Source: Streptococcus salivarius
Lineage (GTDB): Bacteria; Bacillota; Bacilli; Lactobacillales; Streptococcaceae
Assembly (NCBI RefSeq): GCF_002094975.1
Contig: NZ_CP015283.1
Location: 1,535,501 to 1,599,500 of the forward strand
Reading direction: 5' to 3'
Length of the DNA stretch: 64,000 nt
The position numbers and the translations under genes were made by a program. Below the pieces are notes generated by a model. That model was not told the DNA's origin. It searched no databases and saw nothing but the letters and a program-made list of their open reading frames with translations. Position 1 is the first letter of the stretch. Every line of letters begins with the position of its first letter. Positions 3 through 52,700 of this stretch are shown piece after piece.

Positions 3-449
3 ATTACTGAAAATGCTTTAACATCTGATATTGAGATTGAGGCAGAAGAAGGTGAAGTTCCTAATACCTTTGTGGACGGGCGTAACCATCTCTTCCTTTC
101 TTTTGCAGCTGTTCTAGCTAAGCAACGTGGTATTACTGATATTGTTACGGGTGTTTGTGAGACAGACTTTTCTGGTTATCCAGACTGTCGTGATGTATTT
201 GTCAAATCGCTTAATGTCACACTTAATCTAGCCATGGCCTATGATTTTGTTATCCAAACCCCACTCATGTGGTTGGATAAGGCTGAGACTTGGGCTTTGG
301 CTGACCAACTAGGAGCTTTTGACTATGTTCGTGAAAAAACACTAACTTGCTATAACGGTATTATTGGAACTGGTTGCGGGGAATGCCCTGCCTGCCACTT
401 ACGTCAAAAAGGTCTTGAAAAATATCTAGCAGAAAGAGGAGAAGCTTAA
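3..449 (+). CDS. queC: QueC, 7-cyano-7-deazaguanine synthase (partial, 5' end outside window)
   Basis: ATP-dependent conversion of 7-carboxy-7-deazaguanine to preQ0 in queuosine precursor synthesis. The reading frame is open from the first bases, so the N-terminus with the ATP-binding loop lies upstream. The visible part contains the family's conserved DGRNH segment and the C-terminal zinc-binding cysteines in [16 protein letters not shown], followed by the usual short basic tail. Its stop overlaps the queD start by one base, and queD, queE and queF follow, which confirms the pathway. Identification is secure; only the start is unknown. Confidence 0.95.
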
Positions 450-892
450 TGTTCTTTGCACCGAAAGAAATCAAAAAAGAAACAGGTGAGTCCTTGGTTT
501 ACAATCCTCACCGTACAATGGTTTCTAAAGAGTTTACTTTTGATGCTGCCCACCATCTCTTTAATTATGAAGGTAAATGTAAATCACTTCATGGTCATAC
601 CTACCATCTTCAGATTGCAGTAAGTGGCTACTTGGATGAGCGTGGCATGACCTATGATTTTGGTGACCTTAAGCGCATTTATAAGGACCATTTGGAACCT
701 CACTTAGATCACCGTTATCTCAATGAGACATTGCCTTATATGAATACAACTGCGGAAAATATGGTTTTCTGGATTTTCCAGACGACGAGTCAACATTTGC
801 CAGAGGAGAGAGGACTTCGTTTGGAATATGTGCGTCTTTATGAAACACCAACAGCCTTCGCAGAGTTTAGACGGGAGTGGTTGGATGACTAG
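449..892 (+). CDS. queD: QueD, 6-carboxy-5,6,7,8-tetrahydropterin synthase
   Basis: Converts 7,8-dihydroneopterin triphosphate to 6-carboxytetrahydropterin, the first committed step of 7-deazaguanine synthesis. The 147-residue protein carries the zinc-binding histidines (FDAAHHL and HGHTYHL) with the catalytic cysteine nearby in GKCKSLHGH, and LDHRYLNE in the C-terminal half. The start ATG overlaps the queC stop and has AGAGGAG upstream. It runs slightly longer at the N-terminus than minimal QueD proteins. The end overlaps the start of queE. Confidence 0.95.
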   Translation: MFFAPKEIKKETGESLVYNPHRTMVSKEFTFDAAHHLFNYEGKCKSLHGHTYHLQIAVSGYLDERGMTYDFGDLKRIYKDHLEPHLDHRYLNETLPYMNTTAENMVFWIFQTTSQHLPEERGLRLEYVRLYETPTAFAEFRREWLDD

Positions 893-1601
893 AGAACGTG
901 TACTCAAACTGCCAGTACTTGAAATTTTTGGACCGACCTTTCAAGGGGAAGGCCGAGCTATCGGGCAAAAGACCATGTTTGTAAGGACAGCAGGATGTGA
1001 TTACCATTGTGATTGGTGTGATTCTGCCTTTACTTGGGATGGGTCAGAGAAGCCAACACGTATGACAGCTGATGAAGTTATTGAAGCTTTGGATGCGCTA
1101 GGAACTTACGACTATGTCACTCTTTCTGGAGGGAACCCAGCTCTTTTAGCGGCAAATATGGCTGAACTCGTTTCAAAACTCAAGGCTAGAGGAGTAACTT
1201 TGGCCGTTGAGACACAGGGTTCTCGCTGGCAGGAGTGGTTAAAGGATATTGATCAAGTAACCTTAAGTCCTAAACCACCATCATCCAAGATGGAAGTCAA
1301 TATGGAAACCCTTGACTTTATTGTTTCACAACTTGATCCTGATAAAGTTACCTTTAAGGTTCCTGTTTTCGACGATGATGATTTAGCCTTTGCTAAAATG
1401 ATTCAAGAACGTTATCAGCCAGATGTCATGTTTCTTTCGGCTGGTAATCCTGAACCGAAAGCAGAAGGTAATATTGTCCAACATCAATTAGATCGCCTCA
1501 AAGAGCTTTGGGAGACAGTAGCCGCTGACGACTCGTGGGGCAATGTGCGTGTTCTCCCTCAGCTTCATACTCTACTCTATGATAATGAGCGCGGTGTCTA
1601 A
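885..1601 (+). CDS. queE: QueE, 7-carboxy-7-deazaguanine synthase (radical SAM)
   Basis: Radical SAM enzyme that rearranges 6-carboxytetrahydropterin to 7-carboxy-7-deazaguanine. The N-terminal FGPTFQGEG motif and the CDYHCDWC cluster motif (CxxxCxxC, which binds a 4Fe-4S cluster) are present, followed by TLSGGNPAL, the SAM-binding GGE-like motif. The frame is open further upstream (to 828), but ATG 885 inside the queD 3' end gives the family-typical start MTRERVLKLPVLEIFGP and overlaps queD by 8 bases, as expected for translational coupling. Length is 238 residues. Confidence 0.93.
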   Translation: MTRERVLKLPVLEIFGPTFQGEGRAIGQKTMFVRTAGCDYHCDWCDSAFTWDGSEKPTRMTADEVIEALDALGTYDYVTLSGGNPALLAANMAELVSKLKARGVTLAVETQGSRWQEWLKDIDQVTLSPKPPSSKMEVNMETLDFIVSQLDPDKVTFKVPVFDDDDLAFAKMIQERYQPDVMFLSAGNPEPKAEGNIVQHQLDRLKELWETVAADDSWGNVRVLPQLHTLLYDNERGV

Positions 1602-1723
1602 TCTTCACATTCTATAAGCTTAGAATTGATAGTATTTTTACTTTTTTAATGATTAACATTAGAAATTTAGATTAAAAATTGACCACATAAAGGTCTATAA
1701 AAATTAACAGCAAAGGAAGAAAA

Positions 1724-2215
1724 ATGTCACAACAAGAAGAAATGAAAAACCTCACTCTCCTTGGTAATAAGGAGACACCTTATATTTTTGAATACTCTCC
1801 ACAAGTCTTGGAGTCTTTTGATAATCGTCATACTGATAATGATTACTTTATCAAATTCAACTGTCCAGAATTTACGTCACTTTGTCCTATTACTGGGCAA
1901 CCTGATTTTGCCAGTATTTATATTTCTTATATTCCAGACCAGCTTTGCGTTGAGTCTAAATCTCTAAAGCTTTACCTATTTAGTTACCGTAATCACGGAG
2001 ACTTCCATGAAAACTGTATTAATACCATTGGTAAAGATTTGGTGGAGCTTTTGAACCCTCGTTACTTGGAAGTTTGGGGTAAATTTACACCTCGCGGTGG
2101 TATCTCGATTGACCCTTATTATAATTACGGTCGTCCAGAAACTAAGTATGAAAAGATGGCAGAGCAACGTCTCTTTAATCACGATCTTTACCCAGAAAAT
2201 ATTGATAATCGTTAA
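1724..2215 (+). CDS. queF: QueF, NADPH-dependent preQ0 reductase
   Basis: Reduces the nitrile of preQ0 to the aminomethyl group of preQ1, the last free-base step before insertion into tRNA. At 163 residues it is the short, single-domain (type I) form. The catalytic cysteine lies in [12 protein letters not shown] and the NADPH/substrate motif [15 protein letters not shown] is intact. It is separated from queE by about 120 bp of AT-rich sequence but is codirectional. GGAAGAAAA precedes the ATG. A rho-independent terminator follows immediately. Confidence 0.96.
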
Positions 2216-2225
2216 TATCATGCTA

Positions 2226-2256
2226 AAAGTCCTTATGCAAATAATGGGCTTTTTTT
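2226..2256 (+). terminator. Terminator of the queCDEF group
   Basis: Stem AAAGTCC / GGGCTTT with a 13-nt loop, followed by seven T residues. It lies 11 bp after the queF stop. Confidence 0.8.
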
Positions 2257-2380
2257 CTTGGTTAAACACCTGTCTTTAGGGCGTAAAAGAAACCTGATGA
2301 ATTATTTTCTACAATGAAAAGTAAGGGTATTGTTAGTTTTTCATTGGTCTGTTCTTAGAAACTTCTATTATTAAAATAAT

Positions 2381-2409
2381 TTGACAATAGAAGTTTTATT
2401 TCTTACAAT
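2381..2409 (+). promoter_or_regulatory. Sigma-A promoter of the CAP-like secreted protein
   Basis: Perfect -35 TTGACA (2381-2386), 17-bp spacer, -10 TACAAT (2404-2409). The predicted transcription start is near 2416, just before the cre site. Confidence 0.8.
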
Positions 2410-2425
2410 TAAGGTGTAAATAGAA

Positions 2426-2440
2426 ATGTAAGCGATTGCT
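2426..2440 (+). promoter_or_regulatory. cre site (CcpA operator)
   Basis: ATGTAAGCGATTGCT matches the catabolite-responsive consensus WTGNAANCGNWNNCW at every position. It sits about 10-25 bp downstream of the predicted start of transcription, a position at which CcpA normally represses. Confidence 0.8.
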
Positions 2441-2481
2441 TATAAAAGGTATATTTGTTTTTAAAAAAGGGGACGAAAACA

Positions 2482-4587
2482 ATGAGAAAAAGTTTACGTT
2501 TAATTTCGTGTGCTGTTCTGGGGGCAGCCATACTAGCACCAACGGTTGTTGGTAATAATCGTGCACAGGCCGATAGTTATTATGGCCGAGGTTACTATAA
2601 TAACTATTCTTATAATCCATGGTATAACAACTATTATCCAAACTATGGTTATAACTACGGATACAATGGCTATTATCCAGGCTATAATTACAATTATGGC
2701 TATAACTACGGTTACAATAATTACTATCCAAACTATAACTATGGCTATAATTATAACTATGATTATGGCTATAACAACTATAATCCTGGTTACAACAACT
2801 ACAACGAATCAGGTACTTACCGCTATAGCAATGGCTATTTGTACTACATCTTGAGTGATGGTAGCTACTATGTTAACTATAACGGTCGTTGGGTTCGTGG
2901 TGGTGACTATAATAACAACAATAGTGGTTCTAACAATACACCAACGACAGGTTATGAGGTTTTGAGAAATGACCCTCACTACCGTTATGAAAATGGTACT
3001 CACTATTATTTGAAAGATAATGGCGATTATTACTATTATTCAAATGGTAAGTGGGTACTTGTTAAGGCTTCAAGCACAGATTCTGAAGCTCCAACAACTT
3101 CAACTGTAGATTCAACGTCATCAGCAAGCTCAGAAGCACCATCAACCGTAGGTTCAACTTCATCTGCAAGTTCAGAAGCGGCCTCAACCGTTGCCTCAAC
3201 TTCATCTGCAAGTTCAGAAGGGGCCTCAACAATAGATTCAACCTCAGTGGGTAGCTCAGAAGGGGCTTCAACAGTAGATTCAACTTCAGCGGGTAGCTCA
3301 GAAGGAGCCTCAACAGTAGATTCAACATCGTCTGCAAGTTCAGAAGTAGCTTCAACTGTAGATTCAACGTCATCAGCAAGCTCAGAAGTAGCTTCAACTG
3401 TAGATTCAACTTCATCAGCAAGTTCAGAAGTAGCCTCAACAGTAGATTCAACTTCAGTGGGTAGCTCAGAAGGAGCTTCAACAGTAGATTCAACCTCAGT
3501 GGGTAGCTCAGAAGGGGCTTCAACAGTAGATTCAACTTCAGAAGCAGTATCGACTGGTAACTCAAGCTCTGCTGTAACGTCTGAATCTTCTTCAGCAGCA
3601 ACTTCAGAGACAGGTTCAACATCAGAAACAAGTTCTGAAGCTCCTGAACTTGAAAAACCACCATATGCGCCTGAAACAAACATTGACTATGATAAGTTGC
3701 CAAAACCAACATTGCCACCAACAGATTATCGTATGTACTCAGATCCACGATTTGTAGATGACAACGGTACATATTATTACCGTGTGGCTATGACTGATGA
3801 AGAAAATGCGCGTGGTATCGATGGTTACTACAAATGGGTTGATGGAAAGTGGAAACTCTACAATGCTACTGCCAATGATGACCCTGAGCTTGACCCAGAC
3901 TTCCACAAACCAGCAGGAAACGATGAATACATGTATGATGATAACGCTTCAAGTGTTAAATTGTATTCTGAAAATGTCGTTGGTACTGGTAAAGCAGGTG
4001 AAGCTTTGCCATTCCAAAATGTGGATGAATTCAAAGATTATGTTATCAAGAATCTTGCTCCAAAATTCTTAGATAATTCTGGTTGGGATTGTAAGGTAAC
4101 TTGGGAAATTGAAGATGTTGATAACTTCAATGCTTCTAAAGGCAGTGCTTGGGCACGTGATTATGTGATTACAGCCAACCTTAAGAGTGGTGTTGATGAC
4201 AAAGATTATAAAGACGTTGAATTTGGTTATGTTAAATTTGTTTATCATGTAGAACCAACTGAAAACTCTGATTATGTTGAAGTGGACTCAGCTAAGGCTG
4301 CCTTTAATGAAATCAATGCTCAACGTACAGCTGCCGGTTTACCAGCGCTTACATGGTCTGATGATCTTTACAATAGCACAACTCTTCCACACGCCAAAGA
4401 TATTTCACATACTTACAACAGTGACGGTATTGTTTACCGTCGTGAATCTGATGGTTCAGTTGTTGCAAATAAATGGTTGAGCAGTGGTATTCGTGAACTT
4501 CTCATGAGTCCAGATGCTACTCAAGCTGCAGTGGCTTGTGTTGTCGCAGGTGATGGTACTTACTACTGGACTTTGAATTACCAATAA
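2482..4587 (+). CDS. Secreted Tyr/Asn/Gly-rich and Ser-repeat protein with C-terminal CAP-like domain
   Basis: The 701-residue protein starts with a classic signal peptide (MRKSLRLISC, hydrophobic core, cleavage near AQA-DS). Residues about 35-110 are low-complexity tyrosine/asparagine/glycine. Two short modules of the form RYxNGxxYY..DGxYYYxxxGxW follow. Residues about 205-390 are a serine-rich region built from a 14-residue repeat of the VDSTSSASSEVAST type, with variants. Another GTYYYR module precedes a globular C-terminus. The last 90 residues (AAFNEINAQRTAAGLPALTWSDDLYN...AKDISHTYNS) resemble a CAP/SCP domain. No LPXTG anchor, membrane anchor or choline-binding repeats are present, so the protein is probably released or retained by its repeats. 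ATG 2482 is chosen over the upstream frame opening (2455) because it starts the signal peptide and follows GGGGACG. Expression is likely glucose-repressed (perfect cre). Function is unknown. Confidence 0.85.
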   Translation: MRKSLRLISCAVLGAAILAPTVVGNNRAQADSYYGRGYYNNYSYNPWYNNYYPNYGYNYGYNGYYPGYNYNYGYNYGYNNYYPNYNYGYNYNYDYGYNNYNPGYNNYNESGTYRYSNGYLYYILSDGSYYVNYNGRWVRGGDYNNNNSGSNNTPTTGYEVLRNDPHYRYENGTHYYLKDNGDYYYYSNGKWVLVKASSTDSEAPTTSTVDSTSSASSEAPSTVGSTSSASSEAASTVASTSSASSEGASTIDSTSVGSSEGASTVDSTSAGSSEGASTVDSTSSASSEVASTVDSTSSASSEVASTVDSTSSASSEVASTVDSTSVGSSEGASTVDSTSVGSSEGASTVDSTSEAVSTGNSSSAVTSESSSAATSETGSTSETSSEAPELEKPPYAPETNIDYDKLPKPTLPPTDYRMYSDPRFVDDNGTYYYRVAMTDEENARGIDGYYKWVDGKWKLYNATANDDPELDPDFHKPAGNDEYMYDDNASSVKLYSENVVGTGKAGEALPFQNVDEFKDYVIKNLAPKFLDNSGWDCKVTWEIEDVDNFNASKGSAWARDYVITANLKSGVDDKDYKDVEFGYVKFVYHVEPTENSDYVEVDSAKAAFNEINAQRTAAGLPALTWSDDLYNSTTLPHAKDISHTYNSDGIVYRRESDGSVVANKWLSSGIRELLMSPDATQAAVACVVAGDGTYYWTLNYQ

Positions 4588-5484: not shown

Positions 5485-6355
5485 TTTAGTTGTTGTAACA
5501 GGGATGAGTGGTGCAGGTAAGACTGTGGCCATTCAATCCTTTGAGGATATTGGATACTTCACCATTGATAATATGCCACCTTCTTTGGTACCTAAGGTTA
5601 TCGAATTGGTAAAACATAGTGAAGAGACAGATAAGATTGCTCTTGTCATTGATATGCGCAGTCGCTTGTTCTTCGATGAGATCAACGATATTCTGGATAA
5701 ATTGGAAAGCAATGAGGAACTTAATTTCAAGATTCTATTCTTGGATGCCACGGATGGTGAATTGGTTTCTCGCTATAAAGAGACACGTCGTAGTCACCCA
5801 CTGGCAGCAGATGGCCGTGTTTTGGATGGCATCAAGCTAGAGCGTGAGCTTTTGTCACCGCTTAAGAGTTTGAGTCAGAACGTGGTTGATACGACAGAAT
5901 TAACACCACGCCAGCTGCGTAAGGCTATTTCTGAACAGTTCTCATCTGAACAAGACCAATCTTCTTTCCGTATTGAAGTTGTGAGTTTTGGTTTTAAATA
6001 TGGATTGCCATTGGATGCAGATTTGGTTTTTGATGTTCGTTTCTTGCCAAATCCTTATTATGATCCTGCACTTCGTAACCTCACAGGTTTGGATAAAGAG
6101 GTTTTTGATTATGTCATGAACCATAAGGAATCAGAAGAGTTTTACAATCACTTGACACAGCTTATTAAACCAATCTTGCCTGGCTACAAAAGAGAAGGTA
6201 AGTCTGTTCTCACTATTGCTGTTGGGTGTACAGGTGGTCAGCACCGTAGTGTAGCTTTTGCACATCGTCTGGCCCAAGATTTAAAAAATGATTGGACAGT
6301 CAATGAAACACATCGTGATAAGGATCGACGTAAGGAGACAGTGAATCGTTCATGA
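5465..6355 (+). CDS. rapZ: RapZ / YvcJ, nucleotide-binding RNase adapter protein
   Basis: P-loop protein of the RapZ/YvcJ family, 296 residues. The Walker A motif lies in [18 protein letters not shown], and the C-terminal domain contains the family motif [11 protein letters not shown]. In E. coli RapZ links glucosamine-6-phosphate sensing to small-RNA turnover; in Firmicutes YvcJ binds and hydrolyses nucleotides and affects competence. It overlaps the preceding DUF1003 frame by 20 bases and yvcK by 4 (ATGA), the conserved rapZ-yvcK-whiA order. AGAAAGGGAG precedes the start. Confidence 0.95.
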
Positions 6356-7326
6356 GAAAACCAAGAATTACAGTAATAGGTGGGGGAACTGGTATCCCAG
6401 TCATTCTTCGTAGTTTGCGTTATAAGGATGTTGATATCACTGCTGTGGTAACTGTAGCTGATGATGGCGGTTCTTCGGGAGATTTGCGTGATATCATGCA
6501 ACTGACACCTCCAGGGGATTTGCGTAATGTTTTGGTAGCTATGAGTGATATGCCTAAACTTTATGAAAGAGTTTTCCAATATCGTTTTGATAAAACCGAT
6601 GGTGCTTTGGCTGGTCATCCACTCGGAAATCTAATCATCGCTGGAATTTCAGAAATGCAGGGCTCTACCTATAATGCCATGCAGCTTCTGACGAAATTTT
6701 TCCACGTTACAGGCAAAATTTATCCTGCTAGTGAGACAGCCTTGACGCTTCATGCCGTTTTTCAAGATGGTCATGAAGTAGCAGGGGAGAGTAGTATTGC
6801 CCAGTACGATGGCATGATTGAGCGCGTTTATGTGACCAATACCTATAATGATGAAGAGCCTAAGGCCAGTCGTAAGGTTGTAGATGCTATTATGAATAGT
6901 GATATGATTGTTTTAGGTCCTGGATCTCTTTATACATCGATTTTGCCCAACCTGGTGATACCAGAGATTCGTCAGGCTCTTATCGAGACCAAGGCTGATG
7001 TCACGTACATTTGTAATATTATGACTCAGTACGGAGAAACGGAGCAATTCTCAGATGCCGACCATGTGGCTGTTCTTAATCGTCATCTTGGCTCTGATGT
7101 GATTGACAATGTCTTAGTTAACATCAAGAAAGTGCCTAAGGAATACATGGCTAGTAATAAATTTGATGAATACCTTGTTCAGGTTGAGCATGATTTTGAG
7201 GGCTTACGTCGTGAAGCTAAAACAGTTGTGTCTTCTAATTTTTTGCGACTTGAAAATGGTGGTGCCTTCCACCATGGTGACTTGGTAGTGGATGAGCTCA
7301 TGCATCTAGTGAGGAACAAGTCATGA
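6352..7326 (+). CDS. yvcK: YvcK / CofD-like gluconeogenesis factor
   Basis: Member of the YvcK/CofD-like family, 324 residues. These proteins bind UDP-sugars and are needed for normal cell shape and growth on gluconeogenic carbon sources in Bacillus. The N-terminal [13 protein letters not shown] loop, the [10 protein letters not shown] motif and [15 protein letters not shown] are all intact. It is translationally coupled by ATGA overlaps both to rapZ upstream and to whiA downstream. Confidence 0.94.
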
Positions 7327-10683: not shown

Positions 10684-12228
10684 ATGAAAAAGAAACGCAT
10701 TTTTGGCCTAGCAGGAATAGCAGCAGTTGTTTTAGCTGCTGGTGCAGGTATTTATTATACGACTAGTCACCACGGTTCAAAAGGAAATAGCGACTTGAAG
10801 GTTGTGACCAGCTTTTACCCTGTTTATGAATTTACAAAGCAGGTTGTTGGCGATGAGGGAGAGGTGTCTTATCTTATTCCCGCTGGTAGTGAAGCCCACG
10901 ATTTTCAACCATCTACTAAGAATGTCGCTGACATTGAAAAAGCAGATACTTTCGTCTACCTAAATGAAAATATGGAAACCTGGGTTCCAAAAGTTGAAAA
11001 GTCTATCAACACTAAAAATACAAAAATCATTAAGGCAAGTCAAGGCATGGTTCTCTTACCTGGAATAGAGGAAGAAGATCATGATCACGGTGGAGAAGAG
11101 CATCACCACGAATATGATCCTCATGTTTGGCTCTCACCTAAACGTTCTCAAAAATTAGTTGAAACTATTAGGGACGGTTTGATTGCTCAACACCCAGATA
11201 AAAAAGCAGTCTTTACAACCAATGCTGAGAAATACCTTAAAAAATTAAAGACTTTGGATAAGGAGTATACTGAAGCCTTAAGTCAAGCGAAACAGAAAAG
11301 TTTTGTTACCCAGCACTCAGCTTTTGCCTACCTTGCTTTAGATTACGGTTTGACACAAGTACCAATTTCAGGTGTTTCAGCTGAATCTGATCCATCTGCA
11401 AAACGTATCGCTAGCCTTTCTAAGTATGTCAAAGAATATGACATTAACTATATCTACTTTGAGGAAAATGCTTCAAGTAGCGTTGCCAAAACCTTAGCTA
11501 ATGAAGTAGGAGTTAAGACAGCAGTTTTAAATCCAATTGAATCACTAACTAAGGAACAGTTGAAAAAAGGTGAAGATTATGTCAGTGTTATGACTGAGAA
11601 CCTAAAGAATCTTCGTTTAACAACAGATGTTGAAGGGAAAGCTATCCAACCTGAAACAGGAAGTGATGATAAGAAAACAGTCCAAAATGGTTACTTTGAT
11701 GATAAAGATGTTAAAGATAGAGAACTTTCTGATTGGTCTGGTGAGTGGCAATCGGTCTATCCTTACCTCCAAGATGGTACTTTAGATCAAGTATTTGAAT
11801 ACAAATCTCTATTGAATAAGGATAAAACCGCACAAGAGTACAAAGAATACTACACTAAGGGCTATCAAACAGATGTTTCTAAAATTGCTATTGATGGTAA
11901 AAAGATGACCATGACTTTCACAAAGAATGATGGAAGTAGCGTGACACACACTTATCGTTATGATGGTTATAAGATTTTGACTTATGCTTCTGGTAAAAAA
12001 GGTGTCCGTTATCTCTTCACAGCAACTGACAGTCAAGCTGCTGACAATCCTTACCAATATGTCCAATTTTCAGATCATCAAATAGATCCAACAACTTCAG
12101 CACATTTCCATATTTTCTTTGGTAATAGTAGCCAAGATGAGATTCTAAAAGAGATGGATAATTGGCCAACTTACTATCCTGGAAAACTTAGTGGTTTGGA
12201 AATTGCCCAAGAAATGGTTAGTCATTAA
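10684..12228 (+). CDS. adcA: AdcA, zinc-binding protein with ZinT-like C-terminal domain
   Basis: Zinc-capturing component of the AdcABC importer, 514 residues. The N-terminal cluster A-I binding protein has the expected ligands in EAHDFQPS, DPHVWLSP, TQHSAFAYL and ESDPSAK, plus a histidine/acid loop (DHDHGGEEHHHEYD). From about residue 330 a ZinT domain follows (NGYFDDKDVKDRELSDWSGEWQSV ... HFHIFFG). Unusually, the N-terminus (GLAGIAAVVLAAGAGIYYT) has no cysteine and hence no lipobox, so the protein should stay attached by an uncleaved helix rather than as a lipoprotein. Regulation by zinc is indicated by the AdcR sites. AAAGGAA precedes the ATG. The adcCB genes are not nearby. Confidence 0.93.
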   Translation: MKKKRIFGLAGIAAVVLAAGAGIYYTTSHHGSKGNSDLKVVTSFYPVYEFTKQVVGDEGEVSYLIPAGSEAHDFQPSTKNVADIEKADTFVYLNENMETWVPKVEKSINTKNTKIIKASQGMVLLPGIEEEDHDHGGEEHHHEYDPHVWLSPKRSQKLVETIRDGLIAQHPDKKAVFTTNAEKYLKKLKTLDKEYTEALSQAKQKSFVTQHSAFAYLALDYGLTQVPISGVSAESDPSAKRIASLSKYVKEYDINYIYFEENASSSVAKTLANEVGVKTAVLNPIESLTKEQLKKGEDYVSVMTENLKNLRLTTDVEGKAIQPETGSDDKKTVQNGYFDDKDVKDRELSDWSGEWQSVYPYLQDGTLDQVFEYKSLLNKDKTAQEYKEYYTKGYQTDVSKIAIDGKKMTMTFTKNDGSSVTHTYRYDGYKILTYASGKKGVRYLFTATDSQAADNPYQYVQFSDHQIDPTTSAHFHIFFGNSSQDEILKEMDNWPTYYPGKLSGLEIAQEMVSH

Positions 12229-13301: not shown

Positions 13302-13313
13302 TTCTATAATAAA

Positions 13314-13346
13314 AACTCACAAACTTAGCAAGATTGTGAGTTTTTT
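13314..13346. terminator. Bidirectional terminator between the 12990 gene and yeiH
   Basis: AACTCACAA ... TTGTGAGTT stem with A5 to the left and T6 to the right, lying between convergent genes. Confidence 0.85.
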
Positions 13347-13509
13347 AGATGTCTTTTACCAAAGTCCTAATACCTTTTGCATGAGAAGAGAAGCAAGACT
13401 GATTAATAACCAACAGACTCCTCCCACTAGAAGTGCTGAGCCTCCTTTAGTGATTAGTTTTTTGAGATTTGTTTGGAAACCAATAGCTGTCATTGCCATA
13501 ATAATCATA

Positions 13510-13756
13510 AATTTCGAAAGGTCTTTTAAAGGTGAAAAGACGGCAGGTGTTACACCGAGTGACATTGAAACAGTTGTAATCAGTGAGGCCAAAAGGAACC
13601 AAAGGATAAAGTTAGGCACTGCTTTGGTTAGCGAGAATGCTTCCTTTGTATTGTTCTTTCGCGACTGCCATACAGAAAGCCCAAGAGTTATAGGGATGAT
13701 AGCAAGTGTTCGAGTCAACTTAACAATTGTCGCCTGCTCCAGAATGGATGTTCCAT
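13510..13756. repeat. 247-bp tandem direct repeat, copy 1
   Basis: Starts AATTTCGAAAGG and ends GGATGTTCCAT; identical to the adjacent copy at 13757-14003. Bases outside the two units differ (13509 A against 13756 T; 13757 A against 14004 G), which fixes the repeat length at 247. Confidence 0.97.
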
Positions 13757-14003
13757 AATTTCGAAAGGTCTTTTAAAGGTGAAAAGACGGCAGGTGTTAC
13801 ACCGAGTGACATTGAAACAGTTGTAATCAGTGAGGCCAAAAGGAACCAAAGGATAAAGTTAGGCACTGCTTTGGTTAGCGAGAATGCTTCCTTTGTATTG
13901 TTCTTTCGCGACTGCCATACAGAAAGCCCAAGAGTTATAGGGATGATAGCAAGTGTTCGAGTCAACTTAACAATTGTCGCCTGCTCCAGAATGGATGTTC
14001 CAT
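13757..14003. repeat. 247-bp tandem direct repeat, copy 2
   Basis: Exact copy of 13510-13756 with no spacer. No divergence is visible between the copies, so the event is recent or the copies are homogenised. Confidence 0.97.
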
Positions 14004-14708
14004 GTAAGCTATCCCAGGAACTAGCTGTAGCAGTTACAGAAGAAGTATCGTTGACAGCTGTTCCAGCAAATATGGCAAAGCCTTGATTACTAAGTCCCAA
14101 CCAGGATCCCAAGTGAGGGAAGAGTAAAGCCGCTAAGATGTTAAAAAAGAAAATTACAGAGATTGCTGTTGCAATAGATTCATCTTTAGCCTTGATTACA
14201 GGAGCGGTTGCAGCGATAGCAGATCCCCCACAAATAGAGGAACCAACACCTACTAAAGTAGCAATTTCACTATCTAGCTTGAACACGCGATGGACGACAT
14301 AAGCAGTAAGCAGTGCCGTAGTAATAGTCACTAGAATAATGGGAAGTGATGTTACGCCAACCTTAAAGACTTGGGAAAGATTTAGTCCAAATCCAAGAAG
14401 AACAACAGCGTATTGTAATACTTTTTTAGAAGTGAATTGCATTCCTGTTTTAAGTTTCTGAGAATCTCTTAGAATAATTCCTAGCAGAAGACCTATAAAT
14501 AAACCAAGGACAGGCCCACCAATAATAGGGAATAAGTTTCCAAGGAACCATGCTAGGAGAGATATAAGTATTGCAATACTTAATCCGGGTAAGAATTCTT
14601 TTATTTTCATTCATCTATCTCCTTAAAATTTGACTATATTATAGCTTATTATAAATATGATGTAAAGGTGATGTTTGCTTTATTTATCAAGGAAAATAGT
14701 TCTGAAAG

Positions 14709-15596: not shown

Positions 15597-16505
15597 TTAG
15601 TTGTCAAAAGTGACTTCTTTAACGAGGTTATCTAGGAATTTTTCTCCCATTTTAGAGAGGGTTGCCTTTTCATGCTTCAAGTAAACAATATCAATTTCAT
15701 CATCAATATCAAGCGGGATAGAGACAATGTTATCTCCATTCAAATTACTATTTAAAATACCTGTAGCAATGGTGTAACCATCCAAACCAATTAATAGGTT
15801 GAAGAGTGTCGCGCGGTCTGAAACCACGATGGATTTTTTATGGGGAATCTGAGAGAGGATTTCTTCAGAATAGTAGAAGGAATTATGAATCCCTTGGTCG
15901 TAACTAAGGTATGGGAAGTCTTCTAAATCTTCTAAAGAAACAACTTCATGCTTAGCCAAGGGATTTGACTTGCTGACAAAGATATGTGGTCTAGCTTTGA
16001 AGAGACTGGTATATGTGAGACGGTTGTCGTCAAACATCTTAGTCAAGACATCTCGGTTATAGCTGTTAAGGAAGAGAACACCAATTTCTGAACGGAAGTT
16101 CTTAACGTCCTCAATAATTTCGTAAGTACGTGTTTCACGTAAGAAGAGTTCGTAACGTGTCATATCAGCTCTTTTGAGAAGTGAGACGAAAGCATTGACA
16201 ACAAAAGCGTAGTGTTGAGAGGAAACACTAAACAATTCACGTGTTTCTGTGTGACTCTTGTAACGTTCTTCCAAGAGATTCGTTTGTTCCACTACCTGAC
16301 GGGCATAAGAGAGAAATTCAACGCCATCCTTGGTTAAGGTGATTCCTTTAGGGTTACGGATAAAGATATCAATTCCCATTTCTCTTTCCAAGTCACGAAC
16401 AGCATTTGAAAGACTTGGTTGTGTGATGAAAAGTTGTTTTGCGGCTTCATTCATTGAGCCGGTTTCGACGATTTTGATAATATAATGTAATTGTTGAATT
16501 CGCAT
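15597..16505 (-). CDS. LysR-family transcriptional regulator
   Basis: 302 residues with an N-terminal winged helix-turn-helix (MRIQQLHYIIKIVETGSMNEAAKQL then TQPSLSNAVRDLEREMGI) and a periplasmic-binding-like effector domain. The opening residues resemble the streptococcal sulfur-amino-acid regulators of the CmbR/CysR/MetR group, but the exact member cannot be assigned. It is transcribed away from glmS with a 207-bp shared intergenic region. Its terminator is clear. Target genes are unknown. Confidence 0.85.
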   Translation of the reverse strand: MRIQQLHYIIKIVETGSMNEAAKQLFITQPSLSNAVRDLEREMGIDIFIRNPKGITLTKDGVEFLSYARQVVEQTNLLEERYKSHTETRELFSVSSQHYAFVVNAFVSLLKRADMTRYELFLRETRTYEIIEDVKNFRSEIGVLFLNSYNRDVLTKMFDDNRLTYTSLFKARPHIFVSKSNPLAKHEVVSLEDLEDFPYLSYDQGIHNSFYYSEEILSQIPHKKSIVVSDRATLFNLLIGLDGYTIATGILNSNLNGDNIVSIPLDIDDEIDIVYLKHEKATLSKMGEKFLDNLVKEVTFDN

Positions 16506-42512: not shown

Positions 42513-43337
42513 ATGAAACGTTTTAGTCTATCAGGTTTCCAACTCAAATATATAGCCCTAATTACTATGGTATTCGACCATATTCAATATTTTTTTGAAT
42601 ATACAGGAAAAATACCCATTTGGTTTACTATGATTGGGAGATTAGCGGCCCCCTTATTTCTATTTGCTGTGATTGAAGGTTTCGTCCATACACACAATCG
42701 AAAAAAATACTTCCTAAGGATTTATGCTTTAGCTATTTTGATGGGATTGATTCAGTTTGGATTTTATAATTTTTTACATCCTCTTGTAAGGCCAGATGGT
42801 TTCTTTCCACAAAATATGATGTTGTCATCATTCGTTATCTTGCTCGTTGCTCTTCAAGGTATCGCTTGGATTCAAGAAAGGAAATATCTAAAAGGAATCC
42901 CAACCTTACTTTTTCCAATATTACTCCCATTGCTAATGTTGCCTTTTTATCTGCTAAGTGTGAACAAACCTATGTTAGGTTTTCTACTTAAATTACTCAA
43001 TTTTACAGTGCTACCAGTTCATACATTTATCAGCGATGGAGGAACGTGGTTACTTTTGACTGGTATCGCTATGTATCTTTGTCACAAGAATCTTAAGAAA
43101 GAAGTGCTTGCTTTTGTGAGTGTTAGTCTAGTTTGGGCACTAATAGCGATTGTTCTAAGTAGACCTTCTTTTCACGATTTAATGTTTAAATACATTGAAT
43201 GGATGGAAATATTTGCAGCTCCCTTAATGCTTTGTTATAACGGTCAAAGAGGTAAAGGGTCAAAATATTTGTTCTATGTCTTTTACCCAACACATATTTA
43301 TCTACTTTACGCCTTGTCAGTTATCTTCTATAGATGA
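42513..43337 (+). CDS. TraX-family integral membrane protein
   Basis: 274 residues with about eight to nine helices. The N-terminal GFQLKYIALITMVFDHIQYFF, the IGRLAAPLFLFAVIEGFVHT block and the C-terminal YVFYPTHIYLLY motif identify the TraX family, named for F-pilin acetylation. In streptococci it is not linked to conjugation, and its acetyl acceptor is unknown. Here it lies between an immunity ABC operon and a two-component system, which suggests a cell-envelope role. AAAGGAG precedes the ATG. Confidence 0.88.
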   Translation: MKRFSLSGFQLKYIALITMVFDHIQYFFEYTGKIPIWFTMIGRLAAPLFLFAVIEGFVHTHNRKKYFLRIYALAILMGLIQFGFYNFLHPLVRPDGFFPQNMMLSSFVILLVALQGIAWIQERKYLKGIPTLLFPILLPLLMLPFYLLSVNKPMLGFLLKLLNFTVLPVHTFISDGGTWLLLTGIAMYLCHKNLKKEVLAFVSVSLVWALIAIVLSRPSFHDLMFKYIEWMEIFAAPLMLCYNGQRGKGSKYLFYVFYPTHIYLLYALSVIFYR

Positions 43338-43371
43338 TATGATAAGGGTACTTTGTATGAAAGGAGAGGTT

Positions 43372-44031
43372 ATGGCTCAGATACTTGTCGTTGATGATCA
43401 GGAAGATATTGTTCAATTTGTTGTAAAGGCTTTAGAGCTCCAAAATCATAAGGTGACGGGGCTTACAAGTGTTTTAGATTTGGATAAGAACTCGTTGCCA
43501 CGGTTTGACTTGATTTTACTGGATATTATGATGCCTGATGTTGACGGTCTCCAGTTTTGTCATGACATTCGGGATCAGGTGGATTGTCCTATACTCTTTA
43601 TTACAGCTAAAACACAAGAGGCAGATATTGTCCAGGGGTTGACTTATGGTGCAGATGATTATATTTGTAAGCCATTTGGGATTAAAGAACTTCAAGCGCG
43701 TGTGGCTGCTCACTTGAGACGTGAACATCGTGAGCGCCACCATAAGCTATTAATTGAAAATATTCAGTTTGATTTGTCTGCTCAGGAGCTTTATGTTGAG
43801 AATCAGTTGTTAGATTTGACTAGGTCAGAATATCGTATTTGTCAGTTTCTGGCTGAAAATAAGGGCCAAGTCTTTTCCAAAGAGCAAATCTACACGCATT
43901 TGTACGGCTATGAGGATAAAGGGAGTCCGACAGCAGTGGCTGAACATATCAAAAATATCCGTGCAAAGCTCAAAAATGTTGGGCAAAATCCTATTGAAAC
44001 AGTCTGGGGGATTGGTTACAAGTGGCACTAA
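43372..44031 (+). CDS. OmpR-family response regulator
   Basis: 219 residues: receiver domain with acidic pair VDDQEDI, phosphoacceptor Asp in ILLDIMMPDVDG, Lys in TAKTQEADI; C-terminal winged helix (LLDLTRSEYRICQFLAENKGQVFSKEQIYTHLYGY, GSPTAVAEHIKNIRAKL). ATG 43372 is used (GAAAGGAGAGGTT before it). It overlaps the kinase start by 10 bases. It probably controls the neighbouring immunity/TraX genes. Confidence 0.9.
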   Translation: MAQILVVDDQEDIVQFVVKALELQNHKVTGLTSVLDLDKNSLPRFDLILLDIMMPDVDGLQFCHDIRDQVDCPILFITAKTQEADIVQGLTYGADDYICKPFGIKELQARVAAHLRREHRERHHKLLIENIQFDLSAQELYVENQLLDLTRSEYRICQFLAENKGQVFSKEQIYTHLYGYEDKGSPTAVAEHIKNIRAKLKNVGQNPIETVWGIGYKWH

Positions 44032-48231: not shown

Positions 48232-48645
48232 ATGCAAAAAACATTTTTTATTATTAAACCAGATGCTGTAAAACGACACTTGATGTGACAAGTTATTGAT
48301 CGTATTGAACGTCGTGGCTTCATTATTGAACGAATGGAAATGCTGACACTTGATGAAGAACGACTTAAAGAACATTATGCTCAATTGGTTGATAAACCTT
48401 TTTTCCCTAGCATTGCAGAATTCATGATGAGTGGTCCATCAGTGATTGGTATTATTTCTGGTTCAGGTGTTATCAAGTCATGGCGTGATATGATGGGAGC
48501 AACTAATCCAGGCGATGCTGCACCTGGAACGATTCGTGGAGACTTTGCAACAGCACCAGATGGTGACATGATTCCAAATATTGTTCATGGCTCTGATTCA
48601 GATGAATCTGCGGCTCGAGAAATTAAGATTTGGTTTGGTGAGTAG
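48232..48645 (+). pseudogene. ndk: Nucleoside diphosphate kinase, interrupted by an in-frame stop
   Basis: From ATG 48232 (GGTTGGG before it) the frame reads MQKTFFIIKPDAVKRHLM, then TGA at 48286-48288 where family members have glycine (GGA would give the usual LxGxVxxRIE), and continues in the same frame [18 protein letters not shown] ... to the stop at 48645. The catalytic histidine (NIVHGSDS) is downstream of the stop and intact. A restart at ATG 48334 would lack the KPD lysine and first beta strand and is unlikely to be active. It is one substitution from a normal 137-codon gene. Confidence 0.92.
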
Positions 48646-49786: not shown

Positions 49787-52700
49787 ATGGGGAAAAAGGA
49801 ATTACAACGTTATTCACTCAGGAAGTCTAGCCTTGGTGCGGCTTCTGTTCTTTTGGGGACTGCAGTTCTTGCAGTAGGAGGTTCAAATGCAAGCGCTGAT
49901 GAAGTTGCAACAACTACAGATTCAGCAACACCAGCAGTTGAAGCAACAGATGCTGTTGAAGAAAGCACTTCTGCCGTAGCAGATTCAACTGAAAAGAAAG
50001 TTGTTAACGTTACTGAGGAAGGTAACACAACTGTTACAACGAGTGAAGTAACAAATACAAGCTTAGAAGCTGCAAAAACAGCTGCAACTAACGAAGGGGT
50101 TGAGGTTAAGGAAGAACCTGCTCAAACCAAAGAAACTGTTGAAGCAGCTGCTGCAGATAATAAAGCACAAGCAGAGAAAATCAATACAGTCGTTTCTGAT
50201 TATAAAGCGGCTAAAGAACAATACAAGTCAGATAAAGCTGACTATGATAAAGCAAAAGCAAACTATGATGCAAAATTAGCTGAGAAAGCACTTGCTGATA
50301 AAACAAATGCTGAAGCTCAGGCTAAATATGATACTGAAAAAACAGCTTATGATAAAGCTTCAGAGCAATACCAAATTGCTAAGCAAGCTTATGACTCAGC
50401 TCTTTCAGAGTACAAGACTAAGAAAGTTACTTATGATGCTAAGGTAGCAGAAAAAGAAGCCGCTGATAAAGAAAATGCGCTTTCTGCAGCTAAATACCAA
50501 GCAGAATTGGCAACATATAACCAAGCAAAAGCTGATTATGAAGCAGCTCTTGCTCAGTACAATAGCGATAAAGCCAAATACAATGCTGAAAAAGCTAACT
50601 ATGATAATAAAGTAGCTGAAAAAGTTGTTACGGAAAAACGTAACGCTGAAGCTGAAGCTAAATATCAAACTGAGCTAGCAGCATACAATGAAGCAAAAGC
50701 TAAATATGATGTAGAAAAAGCAGCATATGACAAGAATCTTGAACTTTATAACGCTAAGAAAACAGCTTATGAAGCAGATCTTGAAACAAAACAAGCTATT
50801 GAAAAATACAATGCAGATGCTAAAGCTAAGTACGAAGTAGCCTTGGTTGTCTACAATGAGCAAAAAGCTAAATATGACCTAGAGTACCTTGAGTATCAAA
50901 ACAAATTAGCTGTCTACCAAACAGCACTTAAACAATACCAAGATGCTAAAACAGCTTACGATAAATACATGAATGATCCTGTATATCGTAACCTTAAAGA
51001 TGCTGAAGTTGTTCAAGAATTGACTTTCCAACGTGAAAACGATGCGACACACAAAGTTGAAGGTGTAAGCAACTACTTGACAAAAGAAGCACAAGAGCGT
51101 CTTAACACAAGTAATGTTTTCCAATATGACTCTAACAAGTTACAAGCATCTGACATTGTTTCAAATAGCCCTTGGACAAACACTGAAGACGAGTGGATTC
51201 AAGTTAAAGAAGGTGACAAATTTGTTGTTACTTATGATGGTTTGAACCAATCAAGCATGCTTGTTGAGAATGAAGCATCAGCAATCAAACGTGTTGTATA
51301 CCGTTACGAAATCGTTAGCCTTCCATCAAACGACGGAAAAGGTATCGCGAAAATCAGTAAGGATCCAACAGTAACTATGACAGTTGGAGCGTCAACTGAT
51401 CAAGATAAACCGGTTAAAGTAGCTGTAGATGTTGAGTTTTACGATAAAGATGGTAAAATGTTCAACCTTAGTGAGCGTAATGCTATCGTAGCACTTAACT
51501 CACTTAACCACTGGAACGGTGCAGCTTATGTTGAAACATCTGAGCGCCCACGTCCACTTACAGTAGAAGCGAAAGACGTTAATGGTAATACTGTTCGCGG
51601 TACTTACAATCCTTACGCAGATGGTTCTACTTTGGCAATCCAAAACGGTGAAGTTGTTACAAAATCTGGTTACGCAGATTTTGGTGGAGCTACTGTTAAC
51701 GTTTCAGATGAGAACCCACTTAAGGTAGTGGTTCCTATCTCTGACTGGAATGGTTCAGAATGGGTTGTCTCACGTGAAATTCCAACTGATGTAACAACTC
51801 TTAATGCTTCAGGTAGTGGTAATGGCCACGCTCTTGGTAACCAAGATTATACGTTTGGTGATAAAGATGATGTTATTGGTTCATACAGTGTTTCTGCTGA
51901 AACTGGTTTGATTACATTCACACCTAAGAAAAAATACCAATCAACACGCCACCAAGAATATGTAAATATTGGTGATAACCAATTCATCGCTATTCCAAAA
52001 TCATCAGTTACTTATGATGCTGCTACTAAAGAAGTAACATCAGTCAATGATAACCAATACATTGACCACGGTGCAGTCTTTAATGGTGAGACAACATCAG
52101 AATTGACAGGTTGGGATAACGCTGATTCACCTTACCTCTACTATGGAGGTGCAGGTATCAAGATGACTAATGGTCACTTGGTATTTACTGCTGAAGGTGC
52201 AAATGCTGATGGTGCACCAACAGTTTATTGGTTCGCAATCAACTCTAACCTTGGTTTGCCTAAGAATCCAGGTGAAAAACCTGAAGAACCTAAGGCACCA
52301 ACACCACCAACAGCACCGGTTAAACCAGTGGTTAAAACAGTTGGTATCAATCCACAAGAACCAACACCACCAACACCTCCAAAAGAGCCAGTGGCACCAA
52401 CGCCACCAACACCAAAAGTGGTTGAAGTTCCTGGTAAACCACAAGAACCAACACCTCCAAAAGAGCCAGTGGCACCAACGCCACCAACACCAAAAGTGGT
52501 TGAAGTTCCTGGTAAACCACAAGAACCAACACCACCAACAGGTCCAACGGCACCAACGCCACCAACACCAAAAGTAGTTGAAGTTCCTGCTAAACCAGTA
52601 GAACCTAAAACTCCTGAAAAACCAAGTGTTGTATGGCACAAGAACTATGTCGTTGAGAGAGAGTCTCACGTGGTACCACCAACTCCACCGACTACTCCAC

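What the first reader, a model, noticed from the sequence alone, without database searches (positions are those of the whole stretch)
13510..14003. Exact 247-bp tandem duplication breaks a YeiH-family exporter and could revert cleanly
Two adjacent, identical 247-bp units lie inside the gene. Because 247 is not a multiple of three, the frame is lost after the second unit. Loss of one unit would restore a 335-codon gene of normal family length. The copies show no differences, and no microhomology is visible at the join. Perfect tandem repeats of this size are lost at measurable rates by recombination or slippage, so this could be an on/off switch for an anion or sulfonate exporter, or a very recent mutation. 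A long-read assembly artefact is the plain alternative.
Basis: partly seen in the sequence, partly recalled or inferred. Interest (0 to 1): 0.7.

Follow-up and report, generated by a model that had tools for sequence, protein, structure and literature searches.

The report
Fresh duplication breaks a transporter gene
In one oral streptococcus, a 247-letter stretch inside a membrane-transporter gene is present twice in a row, which breaks the gene; its nearest relatives have one copy, so this looks like a recent, possibly reversible one-off mutation (or an assembly slip) rather than an evolved on/off switch.

Summary
In detail: window 13510-13756 and 13757-14003 are two identical, adjacent 247-bp units inside a minus-strand PF03601 (YeiH-like) gene. 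The frame is lost at the join, 284 codons in, and stops 12 residues later. The three closest relatives that hold the gene (97%, 81%, 80% DNA identity) carry one unit and an unbroken 335-codon gene, so the duplication is derived. In 770,348 bases of this genome (33%), 14 other exact tandem-repeat rows were found, all with periods of at most 78 bp and divisible by three; the 247-bp unit is the outlier. The join has no exact microhomology. Best reading: a recent short-junction tandem duplication that knocks out a dispensable transporter; an intact paralogue exists. Loss of one copy is plausible, as in pneumococcal capsule genes and S. aureus sigH, but I found no evidence of an evolved switch. An assembly artefact cannot be excluded without reads; the usual circular-overlap error is made less likely by a clean seam elsewhere. 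Known kind of event, low interest.

The parts
13356..14610 (-). whole broken PF03601 (YeiH-like) gene, 1255 bp from start codon to C-terminal stop
13720..14610 (-). N-terminal open frame, 296 aa (284 native residues, then 12 out-of-frame residues)
13757..14003 (-). repeat unit met first by the ribosome, 247 bp, read in the native frame
13510..13756 (-). second repeat unit, identical, 247 bp, entered out of frame
13756..13757 (.). duplication join, no exact microhomology
13356..13718 (-). C-terminal open frame, 120 aa, matches PF03601 positions 209-303
13991..14003 (.). inverted repeat (5-bp stem, 3-nt loop) that ends exactly at the unit end; seen after the fact, weak
   Evidence: counted on the nearest relative
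13512..13519 (.). 8-bp palindrome that begins 2 bp inside the unit start; seen after the fact, weak
   Evidence: counted on the nearest relative

Best explanation
A recent spontaneous short-junction tandem duplication of 247 bp in one strain of the Streptococcus salivarius group. Probable mechanism (inferred): during replication or repair a new strand re-engaged its template, or a sister strand, about 250 bases back, and left two identical copies with little or no microhomology. Because 247 is not a multiple of three, the frame is lost at the join and the protein ends after 284 of 335 native residues; the last strongly hydrophobic stretch (residues 303-335 of the intact homologue) is missing, so the transporter is probably inactive (inferred). 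Loss of one copy by recombination or slippage would be expected far more often than reversion of a point mutation (inferred from analogues), so the knockout is metastable, but nothing shows that it was selected as a switch.
For: Exact adjacent identical units. One unit and an unbroken 335-codon gene in 3 of 3 close relatives. The unit differs from that of the nearest relative at 5 of 247 positions, the two copies at 0, so the copying is younger than that split. With intact P0001 as query 260 of 284 genus genomes (the window's own included) match at E 1e-40; the match list is cut, but in every row shown the frame holds no stop and has at least 335 residues, the window's 296 being the one exception. 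Cluster P0001 (335 aa, 99% identical over 96% of the query) holds 3851 member sequences; clusters are made at 90% identity, so members may differ in length. An intact paralogue in the same genome (C1:459525-460505, 61%, 348-residue frame) could make the loss tolerable. The 247-bp unit is the only one of 15 exact tandem-repeat rows in 770,348 bases whose period is not divisible by three.
Against: No reads, so the second copy is unproven in the cell. No exact microhomology at the join, unlike the 7-8 bp direct repeats at two S. aureus sigH duplications (PMC3486894 section 8). No second isolate of the same species could be examined. In the window, 4 of 48 frames paired with G219 differ in length by more than 7%; their causes were not examined, so a general assembly problem is not ruled out by that comparison (the broken gene itself was not among the 4, its G219 partner being cut by a stretch border).
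Confidence: 0.74

Rival explanations
1. Assembly artefact: an overlap between contig or read-graph ends was kept twice and left an exact tandem copy with arbitrary ends.
For: Exact identity, no microhomology and a single frame-breaking exact duplication in the 770,348 bases scanned are also what an untrimmed overlap would leave.
Against: The usual place for this error is the seam of a circular record. C1 begins beside a pyrB-like gene, not at dnaA (gene naming is mine), its ends share no overlap, and the two ends lie directly side by side in G219 and G294 (565706/565707 and 948993/948994): a cleanly trimmed seam, far from this site (C1:1549010-1549503). An inner contig join, or a rotation from an earlier cut, is not excluded.
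Confidence: 0.2
2. Evolved phase-variable switch: the repeat is regularly gained and lost to turn the transporter off and on.
For: Tandem copies can be lost readily: in S. aureus, SigH activity due to such duplications was lost in about 1e-2 to 1e-3 of cells per overnight culture, often through true loss of activity and sometimes through a reporter-plasmid deletion (PMC3486894 passages), and sequenced revertants had lost the duplication (section 8). Pneumococcal capsule genes are switched off by reversible sequence duplications (Waite 2001, 2003, known here from passages and reference lists of PMC4022640 and PMC4243769). Homologues in other streptococci show in-frame duplications (P0002, P0228-P0232).
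Against: 0 of 3 close relatives carry the repeat; no exact direct repeat at the ends; the duplications seen in homologues have other units and keep the frame.
Confidence: 0.04
3. First scar of a pseudogene: the gene is lost for good in this lineage and will decay.
For: Intact paralogue present; the product lacks the C-terminal hydrophobic stretch.
Against: No further damage is visible: the two pieces match PF03601 (positions 1-276 and 209-303 of 304) and the copies are identical.
Confidence: 0.02

Closest known systems
Sequence duplications within pneumococcal capsule genes, types 3, 8 and 37 (Waite et al. 2001, 2003)
   Same: Spontaneous tandem duplication inside a streptococcal gene that inactivates it and can be lost again. 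The two papers were not held; I saw their titles and one-line accounts in PMC4022640 and PMC4243769.
   Different: There, variants arose in culture and reverted; here a single assembled sequence exists and the gene encodes a transporter-like protein.
Short-junction tandem duplications at sigH of Staphylococcus aureus (PMC3486894; passages and section 8 read)
   Same: Spontaneous tandem duplication with a short junction; sequenced revertants regained the single copy.
   Different: There the duplication makes an active fusion gene, units are 1210 and 1888 bp and 8- and 7-bp direct repeats flank them; here the gene is broken, the unit is 247 bp and no exact microhomology is seen.
YeiH of Salmonella (PMC12880088, abstract read)
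   Same: Same broad family name; YeiH is the main driver of sulfite resistance there.
   Different: The intact streptococcal homologue falls below the TIGR00698 cut-off. In Salmonella yeiH is next to the LysR-type gene yeiE; in the window the nearest LysR gene (15597-16505) is separated by a glucosaminidase-domain gene.

Membership tests
PF03601 (Cons_hypoth698) | whole-protein score above the curated cut-off of 24.5 bits | tested here: met
   242.3 bits for the N-terminal piece, 71.6 bits for the C-terminal piece
TIGR00698 (YeiH family putative sulfate export transporter) | score above the curated cut-off of 232.6 bits | tested here: not met
   128 and 24.5 bits for the two pieces, 145.6 bits for the intact homologue P0001
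Short-junction intragenic tandem duplication | exact head-to-tail copies that close relatives lack | tested here: met
   3 of 3 close relatives have one unit
Short-junction intragenic tandem duplication | short direct repeat at the ends | tested here: not met
   0 bp exact; a 3-bp match one base out of register is not unusual (18% of pairs). That joins without homology also occur is recalled.
Phase-variable locus | same repeat in variable copy number among isolates | tested here: inconclusive
   0 of 3 close relatives, each another species' genome, carry it; no second isolate of the same species could be searched
Phase-variable locus | both states in one population | not testable with these tools
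   needs reads or PCR

The most novel reading that the evidence does not exclude
PF03601 transporter genes are a recurrent, reversible contingency target in streptococci: large and small tandem duplications arise in them again and again (247 bp here, 142 codons in P0002, 4 codons in P0228-P0232) and switch or tune anion or sulfite export without any dedicated repeat tract.
Probability: 0.05. Interest if true: 0.5.

Novelty: new member of a known kind. Interest (0 to 1): 0.2.

Why it matters
If real, it is a clean natural example of a metastable knockout: a perfect tandem copy without microhomology that annotation would call a pseudogene but that a culture might undo. It would matter more if other isolates showed independent duplications in the same gene. 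As it stands it is one event in one genome.

Tried and rejected
Microhomology at the join: none exact; the offset 3-bp match is within chance. Inverted repeats at the ends: in the 1008-bp gene region of the nearest relative the unit end is exactly a hairpin end (14 of 1008 positions are) and the unit start is 2 bp from an 8-bp palindrome (4.2% of positions lie that near a palindrome end); both were noticed after seeing the ends, so I give them no weight. Circular-overlap artefact: tested through the seam of C1. Over-long homologues suspected of large duplications: P0121, P0124, P0133, P0137, P0138, P0176, P0182 and P0226 were read; none has an exact adjacent repeat of 4 residues or more; P0138 has an odd C-terminal extension, the other seven an odd or replaced N-terminus. 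Solved structures: no match to P0001 at E 0.001; no structure was predicted. Papers: the listings (each shows only the top rows) held nothing that I saw on a duplication in this gene; one search gave the Salmonella YeiH paper. Passages of PMC8406281, PMC13410964 and PMC4292784 added only citations of the Waite papers or homopolymer and IS cases. Two further searches of papers and one of proteins were left unused.

Full report
What is there. The window holds two identical, directly adjacent 247-bp units at 13510-13756 and 13757-14003. They lie inside a minus-strand gene that starts at 14610. The open frame from that start ends at 13720 (296 aa), and a second open frame at 13718-13356 (120 aa) carries the C-terminal part. 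Both pieces match Pfam PF03601, 242.3 and 71.6 bits against a cut-off of 24.5. From 14610 to the join at 13757/13756 there are 284 whole codons; BLAST matches to the close relatives stop at residue 284; 12 out-of-frame residues follow.

Where it is. The window is G000 C1:1535501-1599500; the genome has two contigs, 2,199,793 and 126,555 bases. The first 20 kb of the small contig match a Streptococcus salivarius plasmid best (92.9% over 81%; 8 records match in all), and the nearest named relative of the gene in the genome scan is S. vestibularis (86% protein identity, which may leave out records very near the window). I infer the S. salivarius group; no record names the window itself.

Relatives. 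Of 284 genus genomes searched (one per species, the window's own included), 3 besides the window matched the gene's DNA at E 1e-100 or better: G219 (97%), G294 (81%), G213 (80%). All three hold the unit once: window 13757-14003 and 13510-13756 both align to the same stretch (in G213 the second alignment ends two bases short). Each has an unbroken 335-residue frame. With the intact homologue P0001 as query, 260 of 284 genus genomes match at E 1e-40; the match list is cut, but in every row shown the frame has no stop and at least 335 residues, the window's 296 being the only exception. In the protein database the intact form P0001 (335 aa, 99% identical) stands for 3851 member sequences clustered at 90% identity. 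The duplication is therefore derived, and among the genomes searched it was found in this one alone; other isolates of the same species could not be searched.

How unusual it is here. I scanned 770,348 bases of this genome (33%, window included) for exact tandem repeats of period 12 to 3000. Fifteen rows came out; fourteen have periods of 12 to 78 bp, all divisible by three, and the 247-bp unit is the longest and the only one that is not divisible (three of the rows, in L120, lie in one neighbourhood). I did not check that each of the fourteen lies in a gene, but the pattern is what one expects if lasting repeats are coding repeats kept in frame and the 247-bp copy is a fresh accident.

The join. 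There is no exact microhomology at the ends; 55% of endpoint pairs 200-299 bp apart in the relative's gene have none either. A 3-bp match one base out of register exists; 18% of such pairs do as well or better. A small hairpin ends exactly at the unit end and an 8-bp palindrome begins 2 bp inside the unit start, but I saw these after the fact. The unit differs from that of G219 at 5 of 247 positions while the two copies differ at none, so the copying is young.

Artefact or mutation. Without reads the second copy cannot be proved. The commonest artefact of this kind, an untrimmed overlap at the seam of a circular contig, would normally sit at the record ends. Here the ends of C1 do not overlap and lie directly side by side in the two relatives asked, and the duplication lies far from them. 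The record does not begin with dnaA (my naming of the first genes), so a later rotation is less likely, though not excluded. In the window, 4 of 48 frames paired with G219 (of 70 window frames of 100 aa or more) differ in length by more than 7%; their causes were not examined. The broken gene was not among the 4 because its partner crosses a stretch border.

What it does. The truncated product lacks residues 285-335 of the intact homologue, which include the last strongly hydrophobic stretch (303-335). I infer loss of function. An intact paralogue (61% identity, 348-residue frame) is at C1:459525-460505. The substrate is unknown: the intact homologue falls below the TIGR00698 cut-off (145.6 of 232.6 bits); a source names some near relatives YeiH family protein; YeiH of Salmonella confers sulfite resistance (PMC12880088, abstract).

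Known parallels. Pneumococcal capsule genes are switched off by spontaneous sequence duplications that can be lost again (Waite 2001, 2003; seen through passages of PMC4022640 and PMC4243769). In S. aureus, duplications that activate sigH arise at 1e-5 or less; SigH activity was lost in about 1e-2 to 1e-3 of cells per overnight culture, in part through reporter deletions, and sequenced revertants had lost the duplication (PMC3486894). So ready loss of one copy is a fair expectation; it is not shown here. Nothing in the data marks this as an evolved switch. Other duplication alleles exist in homologues: P0002 (in-frame, exact 142-residue repeat, one member sequence) and five 340-residue proteins, P0228-P0232, with in-frame 4-residue repeats, three of them (P0230, P0231, P0232) named Streptococcus pneumoniae by a source. 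Of 234 homologues held, which are only the listed tops of two searches with 7935 and 6669 hits, 8 have an exact adjacent repeat of four or more residues; two of these (P0043, P0156) have normal length. That is the only hint of recurrence, and it is weak.

Verdict. A real sequence feature, most likely a recent, private tandem duplication that knocks out a dispensable transporter; a new instance of a known kind.

Noticed in passing
protein P0002: A 478-aa PF03601 homologue with an in-frame, exact 142-residue tandem repeat from residue 124; single member sequence, 9.7-kb contig.
   Followed up: partly
proteins P0228-P0232: Five 340-aa homologues carry in-frame 4-residue tandem duplications, all within residues 253-272, with three different units; three of the five are named Streptococcus pneumoniae by a source.
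   Followed up: partly
window 14565-14582: Perfect 18-bp palindrome inside the 5' end of the broken gene, also present in L084 (G219), L086 and L032 (S. vestibularis), absent from L085.
   Followed up: partly
window 13311-13345: Stretch that matches its own reverse complement at 86%, between two convergent genes; looks like a two-way terminator.
   Followed up: no
window 3062-3772 and 52369-52605: A frame over 42-bp repeats and a region of 78-bp repeats; the first differs strongly in length from its best G219 frame (236 against 110 aa).
   Followed up: no
window 48334-48645, 43276-44031, 6238-6618: Frames whose lengths differ from those of the G219 partners (103/142, 251/219, 126/114 aa); causes not examined.
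   Followed up: no
G000 C2 ends (L122, L106): The ends of the 126,555-base contig share an exact 30-bp stretch that belongs to a short repeat array.
   Followed up: no
window 10684-12228: One frame joins a ZnuA domain and a ZinT domain.
   Followed up: no
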